Source: Prevotella sp.
Lineage (GTDB): Bacteria; Bacteroidota; Bacteroidia; Bacteroidales; Bacteroidaceae
NCBI GenBank assembly: GCA_017449675.1
Contig: JAFTFG010000006.1
Span: 1 to 64,000 of the forward strand
Length of the DNA stretch: 64,000 nucleotides
Reading direction: 5' to 3'
Shown: one piece after another, positions 60,080 through 64,000 of the stretch
How the letters are laid out: the number at the start of each line of letters is the position of its first letter
How positions within the stretch are numbered: position 1 is the first letter of the stretch
The notes under the pieces: model-generated
Database searches by the model: none
What the model was told of the DNA's origin: nothing
Seen by the model: the letters and a program-made list of their open reading frames with translations, nothing else
Translations under genes and position numbers: made by a program

Positions 60080-60184
60080 TCAATCAATCTGTGTAATCCC
60101 CAGACTATTCACATTGATCTTCCCACTTTGTGCATGGCAAACCCCTGTGAGTAAAGCCATGACCATCATCATTACCGTTTTCAT
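60080..60184 (-). CDS. Small secreted peptide, 34 residues
   Basis: An ATG 17 bases after the stop of the Sel1 gene opens MKTVMMMVMALLTGVCHAQ followed by SGKINVNSLGITQID and TGA. The first part is a convincing signal peptide with cleavage near HAQ. It could be a tiny secreted peptide or the 5' stub of a larger lost gene. No CXXX repeat is present in it. Confidence 0.45.
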   Translation of the reverse strand: MKTVMMMVMALLTGVCHAQSGKINVNSLGITQID

Positions 60185-60201
60185 AACGCTTTACCCTTGT
60201 A

Positions 60202-61092
60202 CTATTTTACCGCTACTGTATCTATCTCCAAATAATCCGAATCAACCTTCACAGAGTCAGGAATATATTCATCTGGATCATTTACATAACCACTTAATAT
60301 CTGTAATCGCCTCATTTCCATAGAATCTATTTGAATCCCATTACGATCATAATAGTTGATGAGCCAACGTGCTGGACGTTTCCCTAAGCAACCCCGCCTA
60401 TCTGCTTTCAGATAATACTTCTCAGCAAGGGGTTCATCTATCATGTCAATACCTTCGTACCCAGAATACATATCAGCAAGCAACCTATTTGCCATTGGTA
60501 TCCGCTCCGACAAGGCACTAAGTTTTGCTAACACTCCACTTCTGCCATTCTGTTTGCCAAGGGAGGACACGGCACAAAGCACTAACTCTCCCAACGAACT
60601 CCCTTTTTCCGCACCAATTTCTATCGCTTTCCTACCTTCAAGAGTATCGCCACGCTGGATCTGCACAACACCTTTTAAAACATACCCGTTTTCAGACCCT
60701 TGGGAAATCAATGCGTCAGCAATACTATCTGCGCTCGAAAAATGACGGGTTCCAAGTCTATCAAATGAATCATAGATCAACTTCATACGATCCATCTGCG
60801 GCAATGCCTTCATAAAGGACAGACTTCCATGTTTCTCCCCATATTGCTCAGCCATCATCAACATCGTGACAGAATTCATAAAATCTGGCTTCACCCCTAC
60901 CCCATCATGGTACATCTTCGCTAATTTGAGGCACGCTTTCCCATCTCCCCATCGAGCCTGCTCCAAGAGGGAAACAAACTGATCATTCACTACGGTCTCA
61001 CTTTTCTGAACATCAGGGATACCTTCACACAACTCCTGTTCTGCACAACTTGCCAGAAAGAAGACAACTAAAGTATAAAATAAGTTATTCAT
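60202..61092 (-). CDS. Sel1/TPR-like repeat lipoprotein
   Basis: A 296-residue lipoprotein with lipobox FLASCAEQ. The rest is built of short helical repeats (ACLKLAKMYHDGVGV, ANRLLADMYSGYEGI, and others) of Sel1 type, likely a periplasmic protein-interaction scaffold. The ATG at 61092 is preferred over a GTG at 61101. It follows tatC after about 140 bases on the same strand, so its link to the peptide system is possible but not proven. Confidence 0.75.
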   Translation of the reverse strand: MNNLFYTLVVFFLASCAEQELCEGIPDVQKSETVVNDQFVSLLEQARWGDGKACLKLAKMYHDGVGVKPDFMNSVTMLMMAEQYGEKHGSLSFMKALPQMDRMKLIYDSFDRLGTRHFSSADSIADALISQGSENGYVLKGVVQIQRGDTLEGRKAIEIGAEKGSSLGELVLCAVSSLGKQNGRSGVLAKLSALSERIPMANRLLADMYSGYEGIDMIDEPLAEKYYLKADRRGCLGKRPARWLINYYDRNGIQIDSMEMRRLQILSGYVNDPDEYIPDSVKVDSDYLEIDTVAVK

Positions 61093-61232
61093 ACTCTTCA
61101 CCTTTAAGTTCTAAATTAAATTATATACATTTTGTTTGCATCACAATACTATATTATATATACAAACTCAATATTTAGAATAGCACCTAACAATCTATAT
61201 ATTTATTAATAGCCATCTTCTGAATATCAAAT

Positions 61233-62096
61233 TTAATGTTCGATCCATCTAACAACACCAATACTTACCTCATAAAGCAAATACAATGGAATTGTAACTA
61301 ATATCAACGTCATCAAGTCTGGTGGAGTAATAATTGCGGCTACAAGCATAATGGCAACAAGTGAATGTTTGCGATAATCAGCAAGCTGATTAGAAGTAAT
61401 AAAGCCCATTTTACCAAGAAAGAATGCAATTACAGGAAGTTGGAAAACTAATCCCATGACCAATGTCAGCGACACGAATGTAGAAACATACGAATCAAGC
61501 GTAATGTTGCTTACCACCTTCGCTGATACGCTATAAGTTCCGAGGAAACGAAAGGAGATAGGGAACAGCACGAAATAAGACATTAGTACACCAAGCAAGA
61601 ACAGAACATAGATAATGCCAGCCACCTGTACCGAATACTTCCGCTCATTCTCATAGAGGGCGGGCGAAATAAAATGGAATAGTTCATATAATATATAAGG
61701 TGAAGCCCCTAGCAGTCCCAGATAGACCGCTGTAGTGATGTGAGTCATAAACTGACTCGACAAGTCGGTTGCAATCAGATTCACATGATACTCTTCAAAG
61801 TGGAAGTCAATGCCTACCGCTTGCATTACTGTTTCCAGCCACCGATACGTGCAAAAGTCCCATTCACTCGGAGCCATAAGAATACTCCAAGTGAAGTCTT
61901 TAAAGCAGAACACGGCAACCGCAATGAGCCCTGCTACGCCGAGAATGCGAAACAACATCTGGCGGAACACCTCAAGGTGTCCGCCAAATGTCAGCAGATT
62001 GCCGTCTTCCTCAGCTATTTCATTTTGAAGTTGCGGCTGTTGTTTCTGTATCGTTTCTTTCTGCTTCTGGTTCTGCTCTGGTTCTGCCTTCTGCAT
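61233..62096 (-). CDS. tatC: Twin-arginine translocase subunit TatC
   Basis: A 287-residue TatC with six membrane spans. Landmarks are [13 protein letters not shown] (TatC N-motif), the [10 protein letters not shown] segment and the late [32 protein letters not shown]. The first ATG in frame is at 62096, which already overlaps tatA by 77 bases; a TTG at 62135 is also open. The added N-terminal tail is Gln/Lys/Glu-rich and atypical. It exports folded proteins together with TatA. Confidence 0.93.
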
Positions 62097-62286
62097 CTTT
62101 TTCTTCTTCGCCTTCTTCTTCAATATCTTCTTCAAGTGGTTCTTTCATACCTTTCTTGAAGCTTTGTACGCCCTGCCCTAAACCTTTCATCATTTCGGGT
62201 AATTTCTTCCCTCCAAATAAAAGTAAAGCAATTCCACCGATTAGCAAAAGTTCGGTGGTTCCAATGAATAACAATTGAGTAGCCAT
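62020..62286 (-). CDS. tatA: Twin-arginine translocase subunit TatA/E
   Basis: An 88-residue TatA: one membrane span ([22 protein letters not shown], with the conserved FG-KKLPE hinge), an amphipathic helix, then an acidic low-complexity tail. It starts 4 bases after the stop of the 92-residue gene, and its acidic tail is encoded by the same DNA as the tatC N-terminus in another frame. Confidence 0.93.
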
Positions 62287-62290
62287 AATC

Positions 62291-62569
62291 CTATTCTGAA
62301 ACTAAAAATATTTCTTTCGAATCAAAGTTTATCTCCCAGTGACCACCGACAGAAGATTCCCACTGGTATTTTTCTGCCATTTTATCCCACCAATCTTGGA
62401 ATTTTGTACTTGTTTCGCCTAAATCTTTTACTAACTTTTCATACAGTTCTGCATTGTCTGTAGAGAGTATCTTTGCAAGTTCATTTAACCCGTTGCGACG
62501 TTCGAAGAGCGTCTGAATCTCATTACGTTCTTCAGGAGTCACATGTCCTACAAGTTTCTTTGTTGCCAT
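62291..62569 (-). CDS. Probable CXXX repeat peptide modification system protein
   Basis: A 92-residue soluble protein without signal or membrane span. The pattern [40 protein letters not shown] and a GGHWEINFD end is the one I recall for the NCBI family named 'CXXX repeat peptide modification system protein'. That family co-occurs with radical-SAM-type maturases. No cysteine is present, so it is not the peptide itself. It is tightly linked to tatA (4-base gap). Identification is from memory. Confidence 0.6.
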
Positions 62570-62694
62570 TATTTCCTGTATTCTGTATAGTTTAATAATA
62601 TTCCATTTGCATGTCGTTCTACTCTTACCGTATTGGTATCAGAACTTATAAGCACTACGACCGTATTCATCCAATTAAAAAACACGCCACCCAT
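62569..62694 (-). CDS. Possible 41-residue ORF before the modification gene
   Basis: ATG at 62694, with GGGAG nearby, opens MGGVFFNWMNTVVVLISSD and ends at TAA that overlaps the next ATG (TAATG). One hydrophobic stretch is present. The frame continues up to a TTG at 62778 without better support. It could be a small membrane peptide or only a coupled leader. No cysteine repeats. Confidence 0.3.
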   Translation of the reverse strand: MGGVFFNWMNTVVVLISSDTNTVRVERHANGILLNYTEYRK

Positions 62695-62854
62695 TATTAA
62701 CTCCCATATAATTAAATTGCCGATTAATTGGACATAGAGGCATAACTTAGCCTGCGAGGGTATTTGATGCTGAACCAAACAAATTTACGGTTGTTCGTCC
62801 ATAAAAAGTCCATCCAAAATGCTATAGTTACTGCTAATCCCATATCATTTAAAT

Positions 62855-62970
62855 TCATTTTGTTTCCTTGGGCATCATAACACGCATAGAATAATTGTAC
62901 ACCTCTACATCCTGTGCATGTGTAGAAAGGAAAACTACTAACAAAAAAGCAATTACGGTATTTTTTTCAT
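62855..62970 (-). pseudogene. Frameshifted small secreted peptide gene
   Basis: ATG at 62970 is followed by seven A and then a stop (MKKIP). With one more A in the run, the frame reads MKKNTVIAFLLVVFLSTHAQ, a clear signal peptide, then DVEVYNYSMRVMMPKETK and TGA. The gene lies 11 bases after the maturase stop. It is either a broken gene or one decoded or switched through the A run. Confidence 0.5.
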
Positions 62971-62981
62971 GATTACACTTC

Positions 62982-63908
62982 TTACCATTCTTTTCTTACG
63001 TCAAACGGATCCAAATAGTCTATTTCAGGAATATTCATTTCTTGCAAGAATTGACCTTCTTCCCTAATAGATGCCAATAGTCTTCGAGCTGCATTGCGCT
63101 CAGTATGCGCAACAATGCATTGTTCGTGACTTGGGGTATTTACTTCTAAAGTGGTCTTGCGATTAAGCCAGATACATCGGCGGCAATGATAGGAGTCGCA
63201 GTGCCGACAAAGTGGAGCATGATCTAATCTCAATAGTTGTTGATTTTTGATGTTCAATCCACTTGCAAGGTCACCAACACTATCCGCTGGATTACTATAA
63301 TAGAAGGCCTGACACAGATAGAATTTTCCATTAGGAGCAATAGTGATGTTTTCTACTCCAGCATTACAATGGTTGGGTGCATCAATCATCATGCGGTCTG
63401 TTAACATGTTGAACTGCGGAGTACGCCCTTTCAAGTATTCTTCTTTAACAACAACAGCCAATTTGTCAAGCAACACATTGTATTGTTCCAAACAACCGTC
63501 AGTCATTGTTTCCAAATCTGTAATAACGACATTAAGGCGCTGAACAACTCTCAATAGATCTGAAATCAACCCAAAGCTTTCAAATAATTGACTCTTTGTG
63601 ACCCGAAGAATCATCACGTCTTGCGGCATGCCCCCCTTTTTAATATCTTCAATAACGTACACGTCTGCTTCGCCACATCCAATAGGTTTGATGTCATGGT
63701 GGTCAATGCTGTCGATTACGTCGATATATTCTTGCGGCAACTCGTAATCAGGATAAACAAACTGTATCATCAAATTCTCCTTCATGGCATAGAAGATACC
63801 AGCCTTCAGGTCATCTATGTTGATTAAACGACGCTCGTTGTAGGGGTTGTCGCAATGACAGTAGTTTACAGAAGTGTCATCCAATAATATTATCAAATAT
63901 TGCATCAT
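62982..63908 (-). CDS. Probable CXXX repeat peptide maturase (SPASM-type)
   Basis: A 308-residue protein. The N-terminus YLIILLDDTSVNYCHCDNP and AMKENLMIQFVYPDYELPQEY match the family I recall as 'CXXX repeat peptide maturase'. The radical-SAM CxxxCxxC motif is absent; only C17 and C19 are near it. The C-terminus is SPASM/twitch-like: C181, C199, then C234, C237, C242, C245 and C264. It would hold auxiliary Fe-S clusters. The start is ATG at 63908 or 63905, three bases after the stop of the upstream gene, so they are one operon. Confidence 0.62.
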   Translation of the reverse strand: MMQYLIILLDDTSVNYCHCDNPYNERRLINIDDLKAGIFYAMKENLMIQFVYPDYELPQEYIDVIDSIDHHDIKPIGCGEADVYVIEDIKKGGMPQDVMILRVTKSQLFESFGLISDLLRVVQRLNVVITDLETMTDGCLEQYNVLLDKLAVVVKEEYLKGRTPQFNMLTDRMMIDAPNHCNAGVENITIAPNGKFYLCQAFYYSNPADSVGDLASGLNIKNQQLLRLDHAPLCRHCDSYHCRRCIWLNRKTTLEVNTPSHEQCIVAHTERNAARRLLASIREEGQFLQEMNIPEIDYLDPFDVRKEW

Positions 63909-63911
63909 AAT

Positions 63912-64000
63912 TTAGCAGTTTATAGGGTTAGACTTTGGCCTATTGGCCTCAAACTCTTCTCGAATTCCTTTTAATTCTAATTTGCGATAGAGCTTATTCC
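63912..64000 (-). CDS. 3' end of the upstream gene, possibly the radical SAM maturase
   Basis: The minus-strand frame from the window edge encodes 28 residues ending EANRPKSNPINC and TAA. It lies three bases before the maturase start. Basic-acidic composition (YRKLELKGIREEFEA) is protein-like. It may be the end of the canonical radical SAM enzyme of the system or of the precursor; the fragment is too short to identify. Confidence 0.45.
   Translation of the reverse strand, partial: NKLYRKLELKGIREEFEANRPKSNPINC

What the first reader, a model, noticed from the sequence alone, without database searches (positions are those of the whole stretch)
60080..64000. Candidate RiPP maturation locus coupled to Tat export
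On the minus strand from the window edge lie an unidentified gene end, a SPASM-type maturase, a disrupted secreted peptide gene, the 92-residue CXXX-type modification protein, tatA, tatC, a Sel1 lipoprotein and a tiny secreted peptide. Seen: overlaps and 3-4 base gaps tie maturase to its upstream gene, and the 92-residue protein to tatA and tatC. Known (from memory): NCBI groups such maturase and small proteins with CXXX-repeat peptides. Inferred: the modified product, or an Fe-S-loaded enzyme of the system, may leave the cell folded through Tat. I know of no description of the Tat link.
Basis: partly seen in the sequence, partly recalled or inferred. Interest (0 to 1): 0.85.

Follow-up and report, generated by a model that had tools for sequence, protein, structure and literature searches.

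The report
Radical-SAM peptide exported by Tat
These genes look like a self-contained kit that chemically modifies a cysteine-rich peptide inside a gut bacterium and then ships it out, probably already folded, through its own copy of the Tat export machine, an unusual route for this class of natural product.

Summary
The window edge cuts a minus-strand operon. The missing precursor lies 2.3-2.6 kb past the edge: a 101-aa CXXX-repeat peptide with a Tat-type leader (SRREFFK, hydrophobic stretch, AxA). Two TIGR04115 radical SAM genes follow, then TIGR04119, TIGR04116, tatA and tatC. Across 102 distinct related loci, 153 of 159 CXXX-rich sense ORFs carry RRxF[FLIVM], against 51 of 5983 control ORFs; tatA and tatC both follow in 67 of 82 loci with enough sequence. 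In 5 of 35 genomes the locus TatC is the only one found. In three genomes of a distant genus the leader lacks RR and an ABC exporter stands where tatAC would be. Best reading: a RiPP modified in the cytoplasm, whose leader doubles as a Tat signal, exported by its own TatAC. The Sel1-like lipoprotein, the 34-aa ORF and the broken small gene do not belong. Modification, export and function are not shown. Found beside it: a covarying leader RNA without an Rfam match, in 222 of 301 family genomes.

The parts
63912..64000 (-). C-terminal end of radical SAM/SPASM maturase 2 (TIGR04115); the gene runs on to contig position 65135. Beyond the window on the same contig (coordinates continue those of the window, all minus strand): radical SAM maturase 1, TIGR04115, 65128-66243; precursor, 101 aa, 66302-66607; structured leader RNA 66627-66949 (model core 66681-66779)
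   Evidence: 611 bits (maturase 2) and 420.5 bits (maturase 1), cut-off 350; precursor; RNA
62982..63908 (-). TIGR04119 'CXXX repeat peptide maturase': SPASM-type partner protein without the radical SAM CxxxCxxC core
   Evidence: 230.5 bits, cut-off 150; alignment A1; profile comparison
62570..62981 (-). remnant of a small gene, broken in all frames; not part of the conserved system
   Evidence: three-frame reading; pieces searched apart, no match in 117 loci
62291..62569 (-). TIGR04116, 92-aa CXXX modification-system protein
   Evidence: 99.9 bits, cut-off 50; present in 80 of 82 loci with enough sequence
62020..62286 (-). tatA of the locus-specific Tat translocase
   Evidence: TIGR01411 60.2 bits, cut-off 53.9
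61233..62096 (-). tatC of the locus-specific translocase (start at the ATG inside the listed TTG frame is inferred; overlaps tatA)
   Evidence: tree

Best explanation
The locus makes a RiPP. Two radical SAM/SPASM enzymes (TIGR04115), helped by TIGR04119 (a SPASM-type partner without a radical SAM core) and the small protein TIGR04116, modify the Cys residues of a Cys-x-x-x array in the cytoplasm, most likely by installing thioether cross-links (inferred). The precursor's leader is a Tat-type signal peptide (SRR[ED]FFK, hydrophobic stretch, then an AxA or a lipobox). The cross-linked, compact product is exported by the TatA-TatC pair encoded at the end of the same operon, and signal peptidase I or II removes or lipidates the leader outside (inferred). 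The same leader probably also recruits the maturases: an LP motif in it is kept even in a genus whose leaders lack the twin arginines (inferred). Shown here: gene families, leader motif, conserved linkage, a TatC lineage distinct from the other TatC of the same genomes, and an exporter swap. Inferred: chemistry, export, processing. Biological function is unknown.
For: Precursor with Tat motif next to TIGR04115 genes. 153 of 159 CXXX-rich sense ORFs, chosen by Cys spacing alone, have RRxF[FLIVM]; controls 51 of 5983. Residues around RR in 152 distinct precursors: S 81% before it, then E 60%/D 18%, F 100%, F 99%, K 89%. tatA and tatC both follow in 67 of 82 loci. All 35 genomes over the TIGR04119 cut-off have a TatC, while 64 of the 266 others have none; 23 of 35 have two or more against 14 of 266. 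In 5 of 35 the locus TatC is the only one found, and in 4 of those 5 TIGR01409 finds no Tat signal at E<=0.1, against 1 of the 30 others. 37 of 45 locus TatCs form one clade (support 99), and one clade of all 45 is not rejected (p-AU 0.503). Exporter swap: in three genomes of one distant genus the leaders lack RR and an ABC exporter follows TIGR04119 directly. 12 of 13 loci with neither tatA nor tatC still have an RR-leader precursor; the six of those 13 that lie in genomes I could search have a TatC elsewhere. Nearest solved relative of the radical SAM proteins is 5wgg, E 7.8e-38, which I recall as CteB, a thioether-forming SCIFF maturase.
Against: The curated Tat-signal model TIGR01409 matches 0 of 39 precursors at E<=0.1. 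The window's precursor scores below the TIGR04117 cut-off (44.3 against 50). 15 of 82 loci were counted without tatC (in one, L062, it lies just past my 6.5-kb limit; another, L155, has tatA only), so tatAC is not obligatory. One CXXX ORF (L160) has no RR leader that I could find. In the free TatC tree 8 of 45 locus TatCs group with nine other TatCs (support 94). The distance matrix of the radical SAM protein barely tracks that of the locus TatC (r 0.12, p 0.08), although TIGR04119 and TIGR04116 do (r 0.51 and 0.53, p 0.0005; 68 loci). The association tests are not corrected for kinship. The own genome is 54% complete. No structure could be predicted.
Confidence: 0.8

Rival explanations
1. The CXXX protein is mainly a metal- or Fe-S-loaded protein, like the Tat-exported copper-storage protein Csp1 (recalled), and is exported by Tat because it carries metal; the radical SAM enzymes do something other than cross-linking.
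For: Cys-Cys spacing of 4 in 84% of steps, up to 49 Cys per protein; 47 of 152 leaders end in a lipobox-like site by my own crude rule, which fits a surface-held protein.
Against: Radical SAM/SPASM maturases are tied to the precursor, and the core is Gly/Ser/Thr rich (x2 is G in 39%, x3 is S/T/G in 73%), which does not favour long helices such as those of Csp1 (recalled).
Confidence: 0.12
2. The leader acts as a Sec signal or plain RiPP leader and the tatAC genes are neighbours for another reason.
For: TIGR01409 does not match the 39 precursors scanned; 15 of 82 loci counted without tatC.
Against: Near-invariant RRxFFK in 152 distinct precursors, linkage in 67 of 82 loci, RR missing together with a change to an ABC exporter, and more second tatC copies.
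Confidence: 0.06
3. The operon's Tat pair exports one of the enzymes (for example the Fe-S protein TIGR04119), as in the first reader's second option.
For: Tat generally carries cofactor proteins (established knowledge).
Against: Of the 51 motif-bearing control ORFs in 102 loci, 46 had no assigned family, 3 were precursor-like and 2 TatC; none was a radical SAM, TIGR04119 or TIGR04116 ORF.
Confidence: 0.02

Closest known systems
NCBIfam CXXX-repeat radical SAM peptide system (TIGR04115, TIGR04116, TIGR04117, TIGR04119)
   Same: All four kinds of gene in one operon; TIGR04115, 04116 and 04119 over cut-off
   Different: Only the family names could be read here; searches for the accessions and for 'CXXX repeat peptide' found no paper in the library. 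Whether NCBI's own notes mention Tat is unknown to me. New here: the leader is a Tat-type signal, and tatAC is part of the cassette
SCIFF/ranthipeptide maturases (CteB, PapB)
   Same: Nearest solved relative 5wgg (CteB by recall); NF047865 PapB, TIGR03974 and TIGR04068 are among the next best NCBIfam matches
   Different: Scores far below their cut-offs (PapB 202.3 and 203.5 of 340; TIGR03974 134 and 119.3 of 425); precursors are long Cys-x-x-x arrays; exporter appears to be Tat
Client-dedicated minimal Tat, e.g. Bacillus subtilis TatAd-TatCd with PhoD (recalled)
   Same: A TatA-TatC pair encoded beside its presumed client
   Different: Client is a radical-SAM-modified repeat peptide; here the pair travels with the maturation genes
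RiPP systems with ABC exporters (recalled)
   Same: Cytoplasmic modification, then export with leader removal; the genus g86 CXXX loci have an ABC exporter gene
   Different: Tat plus signal peptidase would take over both export and leader removal
Csp1 copper-storage proteins (recalled)
   Same: Tat-exported, Cys-rich
   Different: No radical SAM partners; helical bundle against a Gly/Ser/Thr-rich repeat

Membership tests
CXXX-repeat radical SAM system (NCBIfam) | radical SAM maturase TIGR04115 over cut-off | tested here: met
   420.5 and 611 bits, cut-off 350
CXXX-repeat radical SAM system (NCBIfam) | TIGR04119 and TIGR04116 over cut-off | tested here: met
   230.5 (150) and 99.9 (50)
CXXX-repeat radical SAM system (NCBIfam) | adjacent CXXX-repeat target over the TIGR04117 cut-off | tested here: inconclusive
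   44.3 bits, cut-off 50, E 1.4e-11; repeats present (7 C...C); TIGR04117 hits 39 of 39 precursors scanned at E<=0.1, cut-off not checked for each
Tat substrate | twin-arginine motif in an N-terminal signal peptide | tested here: met
Tat substrate | match to TIGR01409 (TAT_signal_seq) | tested here: not met
   0 of 39 precursors at E<=0.1; so I claim a Tat-type leader, not membership of that model
Tat substrate | export depends on TatC | not testable with these tools
   needs a mutant
Tat translocase (TatA-TatC) | TatA and TatC over cut-off | tested here: met
   60.2 (53.9) and 157.6 (132.7); TatB model TIGR01410 only 30.2 of 56.5 for the TatA protein
Ranthipeptide / SCIFF system | PapB (NF047865) or SCIFF maturase (TIGR03974) over cut-off | tested here: not met
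   202.3 and 203.5 of 340; 134 and 119.3 of 425
Ranthipeptide / SCIFF system | non-alpha thioether bonds | not testable with these tools
   needs mass spectrometry
Any Rfam family (leader RNA) | match to a covariance model | tested here: not met
   at gathering: 0 matches in seven loci, 126,006 bases; at E<=10: 0 matches in the 401 bases around the window operon's element

The most novel reading that the evidence does not exclude
A class of RiPPs whose leader peptide is a Tat signal peptide. The maturases read its LP segment and the Tat receptor reads its RRxFFK segment, so that only the cross-linked, compact product is let through, with TIGR04116 as the checkpoint between modification and export. 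Because Tat is patchy in this bacterial family (64 of 301 genomes without a TatC match), the cassette carries its own translocase. Where the leader lacks RR, in one distant genus, an ABC exporter takes over.
Probability: 0.5. Interest if true: 0.85.

Novelty: new variant of a known kind. Interest (0 to 1): 0.76.

Why it matters
RiPP exporters described so far are, to my knowledge, mostly ABC transporters with a leader peptidase. A RiPP whose leader is a Tat signal would join two fields: post-translational peptide chemistry and folded-protein export with its quality control. It gives a testable reason for many of the second tatC copies in these Bacteroidales (23 of 35 genomes with the system have two or more) and predicts Tat-dependent secretion or surface display of heavily modified Cys-repeat peptides. 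The exporter swap is a natural control. Genomes whose only TatC found is the locus copy may hold a Tat system with very few clients, useful for work on Tat proofreading.

Tried and rejected
Rejected as parts: the Sel1-like lipoprotein (60202-61101), the 34-aa ORF (60080-60184) and the broken small gene (62570-62981): no match in 117 loci by tblastn at E<=1e-3.

TatC co-inheritance by distance matrices: TIGR04119 and TIGR04116 track the locus TatC, the radical SAM protein does not; a first run with untrimmed starts was repeated with trimmed ones.

Rfam on seven loci and on the leader RNA: no match. PDB sequence search for TIGR04116: best E 0.29. The leader RNA turned out not to be specific to this system: 222 of 301 genomes. 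One of its measures is weak: 15 pairs with a change on both sides against 12.7 in shuffles, reached by 51 of 500.

Papers: ten searches. Five returned nothing. Three listings were capped: 30 of 1,036, 25 of 74, 12 of 19. No title or abstract start that I saw describes Tat export of a radical SAM RiPP. I saw only listings, plus passages of one paper, PMC8326336, which has no occurrence of 'twin-arginine' or 'Tat' in its main text. The radical SAM/TIGRFAMs survey of Haft and Basu 2011 was not read.
Full report
What is there. The window is the left 64 kb of a 348,795-base contig, and the finding is cut by its edge. Read on the minus strand from beyond the edge, the operon is: a structured leader RNA; a 101-aa precursor (contig 66302-66607); two TIGR04115 radical SAM genes (65128-66243 and 63912-65135, overlapping by 8 nt); TIGR04119 (62982-63908); a remnant of a broken small gene; TIGR04116 (62291-62569); tatA (62020-62286); tatC (from about 62096 to 61233). 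The precursor's leader reads ...LQSRREFFKRAAKSALPMIGAIALASSPAVLQA, followed by Cys repeats such as GCNGSCSGLCSGC. That is a Tat consensus motif (recalled), a hydrophobic stretch and an AxA-like site.

Is it more than chance? TIGR04119 is over cut-off in 35 of 301 sampled genomes of the same family (38 loci). I fetched all 38 neighbourhoods and added the 80 best of 327 relatives from named genomes; removing 16 duplicates leaves 102 distinct loci. The order precursor(s), TIGR04115, TIGR04119, TIGR04116, tatA, tatC recurs. The 20 loci with less sequence were left out of that count. The 80 named loci are the ones most similar to the window's protein, so the sample leans to close relatives; by title they are Bacteroidales or Bacteroidetes, except one labelled Clostridia (L127).

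The leader test. To avoid finding Tat leaders because I searched with one, I took every sense ORF with at least four C...C steps and 5% Cys: 159, in 97 of the 102 loci, of which 153 have RRxF[FLIVM]. Of the six others, two have RRELF or RRQLF, one is cut by a contig end, one looks like a C-terminal piece, one has an RR leader in another frame just upstream, and one (L160) has no leader that I could find. Among 5983 other ORFs of 60 aa or more, on both strands, 51 have the motif. The 152 distinct RR precursors show S 81%, RR, E 60% or D 18%, F 100%, F 99%, K 89% around the motif, L 87% and P 94% at offsets 12 and 13, 47 lipobox-like and 98 AxA-like ends (7 neither), and Cys-Cys spacing of four in 84% of steps. 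The lipobox and AxA rules are crude ones of my own. The curated Tat model TIGR01409 matches none of 39 precursors scanned, so I claim a Tat-type leader, not membership of that model.

The Tat genes belong to the system. Genomes over the TIGR04119 cut-off have two or more TatC matches in 23 of 35 cases against 14 of 266 (Fisher p 2e-16), and 0 of 35 lack TatC against 64 of 266 (p 2e-4); the per-genome counts were read by hand and tested, with no correction for kinship. In a tree of 45 locus TatCs (the first 45 of 75 long enough) and 41 others, 37 locus copies form one clade (support 99); the other 8, on a long branch, group with nine other TatCs (support 94); one clade of all 45 is not rejected (p-AU 0.503). 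In 20 genomes with both copies, mean identity is 68% among locus copies and 44% between the two copies of a genome. The window genome's other tatC sits beside a polyferredoxin and an aldo/keto reductase ORF with its own RR leader. In 40 fetched neighbourhoods of other TatCs, none holds a maturase, TIGR04116 or precursor. In five genomes (G085, G099, G125, G240, G247) the locus TatC is the only one found; four of them show no TIGR01409 match at E<=0.1, against one of the other 30 (p 5e-4). These five are 87-97% complete, so a missed second copy is possible.

The exporter swap. Outside the family I found seven further genomes over the TIGR04119 cut-off: five of 394 and two more in a sample of 245. 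Four (genera g99 and g223) have an RR leader, with no tatAC beside it as far as the sequence reaches (L199 is only 3.2 kb); the two g99 genomes were searched and have one TatC elsewhere; the two g223 genomes were not searched. The other three are of genus g86, and are the only ones over cut-off among 86 genomes of its family. They have a related leader (KTLPG[LF][AG]F) without RR, no TIGR04116 or tatAC in the fetched stretch, and an ABC transporter (PF00664 and PF00005) starting within 33 nt of the end of TIGR04119. Each of the three has a TatC elsewhere, so Tat was available but apparently not used. That the LP segment is shared with leaders that lack RR suggests that it serves the maturases (inference).

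How it most likely works. Shown: the families, the motif, the linkage, the swap. TIGR04119 aligns with the C-terminal, SPASM-bearing part of the TIGR04115 profile (hhalign probability 82, E 1.1e-5) and lacks the CxxxCxxC core, so it is best seen as a non-catalytic or electron-transfer partner (inference). TIGR04116 has no solved relative by sequence and sits between modification and export; a role as recognition element or Tat checkpoint is a guess. Chemistry is inferred from the nearest solved relative, 5wgg (E 7.8e-38), which I recall as CteB. Export by Tat, which carries folded proteins (established knowledge), would suit a cross-linked peptide. The patchiness of TatC in the family would explain why the cassette carries its own. 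The system is patchy too: of 22 sampled genomes of the own genus only the window genome and G291 are over the TIGR04119 cut-off. G291's contig has the same length, and its TIGR04119 protein the same compared stretch, as those of Xylanibacter rarus 109.

Novelty. NCBI has named the families, so the system as such is not new. No listing that I saw in ten searches joins it to Tat (three of the listings were capped). I rate it a new variant of a known kind.

The leader RNA. A conserved element of about 320 nt lies in 65 of 102 distinct loci (64 of the 93 with at least 600 nt upstream of the first precursor), in 43 of them within 150 nt upstream of a precursor start (median 21 nt); in 21 more it is 0.5-3.9 kb upstream, and in one no precursor follows on the same strand. 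Its core has a terminator-like closing helix with a U-run, a second helix and a pseudoknot. On 53 sequences 94.4% of cells pair, against 40-48% when slid, with 138 double-change cells against 51.7 shuffled (none of 500 as high), though the number of pairs with a double change is not remarkable (15 against 12.7, 51 of 500). The structure was drawn from this same alignment. Twenty copies from other genes, found with the model but not used to build it, give 99.6% against 29-51% when slid, and 5 double-change pairs against 1.4. The 3' strand of the closing helix can instead pair with a segment just before the start codon: mean longest helix 6.75 nt, against a swapped mean of 5.62 and at most 6.16 in 300 swaps; a neighbouring control region gives 4.34 against 4.07. 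It has no Rfam match where searched and occurs in 222 of 301 family genomes, up to 13 copies each (E<=0.01). In 20 copies read that are not before CXXX genes, the next ORF looks secreted or lipoprotein-like in 15 by eye and starts 59-88 nt after the core in 13. It is thus a general leader RNA of this family that presumably also controls this operon.

Noticed in passing
contig C17 66627-66949 (-), just right of the window (L003:7628-7950); model core 66681-66779: Conserved, covarying leader RNA with a pseudoknot and a terminator-like helix, without an Rfam 15 match where searched, in 222 of 301 family genomes with up to 13 copies; in 13 of 20 non-CXXX copies read, the next ORF starts 59-88 nt after the core. 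Candidate new regulatory RNA class.
   Followed up: partly
L194, L197, L198: CXXX systems of another Bacteroidota lineage with RR-less leaders and an ABC exporter in place of tatAC.
   Followed up: yes
L003, L041, L061: Loci with two tandem TIGR04115 genes; all three have 0.4-0.6 kb of extra sequence between TIGR04119 and TIGR04116.
   Followed up: no
L045:6087-7313, L060:5261-6511: CXXX precursors with a globular insert between two Cys-repeat blocks; one of the 39 precursors scanned matches the FISUMP domain, so the modified repeats may decorate larger exported proteins.
   Followed up: partly
L036:4853-8726 (contig C25): The genome's other tatAC lies with a polyferredoxin and an RR-leader aldo/keto reductase ORF with a lipobox-like site, a second tatAC-plus-client cluster.
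   Followed up: partly
L003:8725-10667: DUF6078 and VapE-like genes upstream of the operon on the other strand, possibly remains of an integrated element.
   Followed up: no
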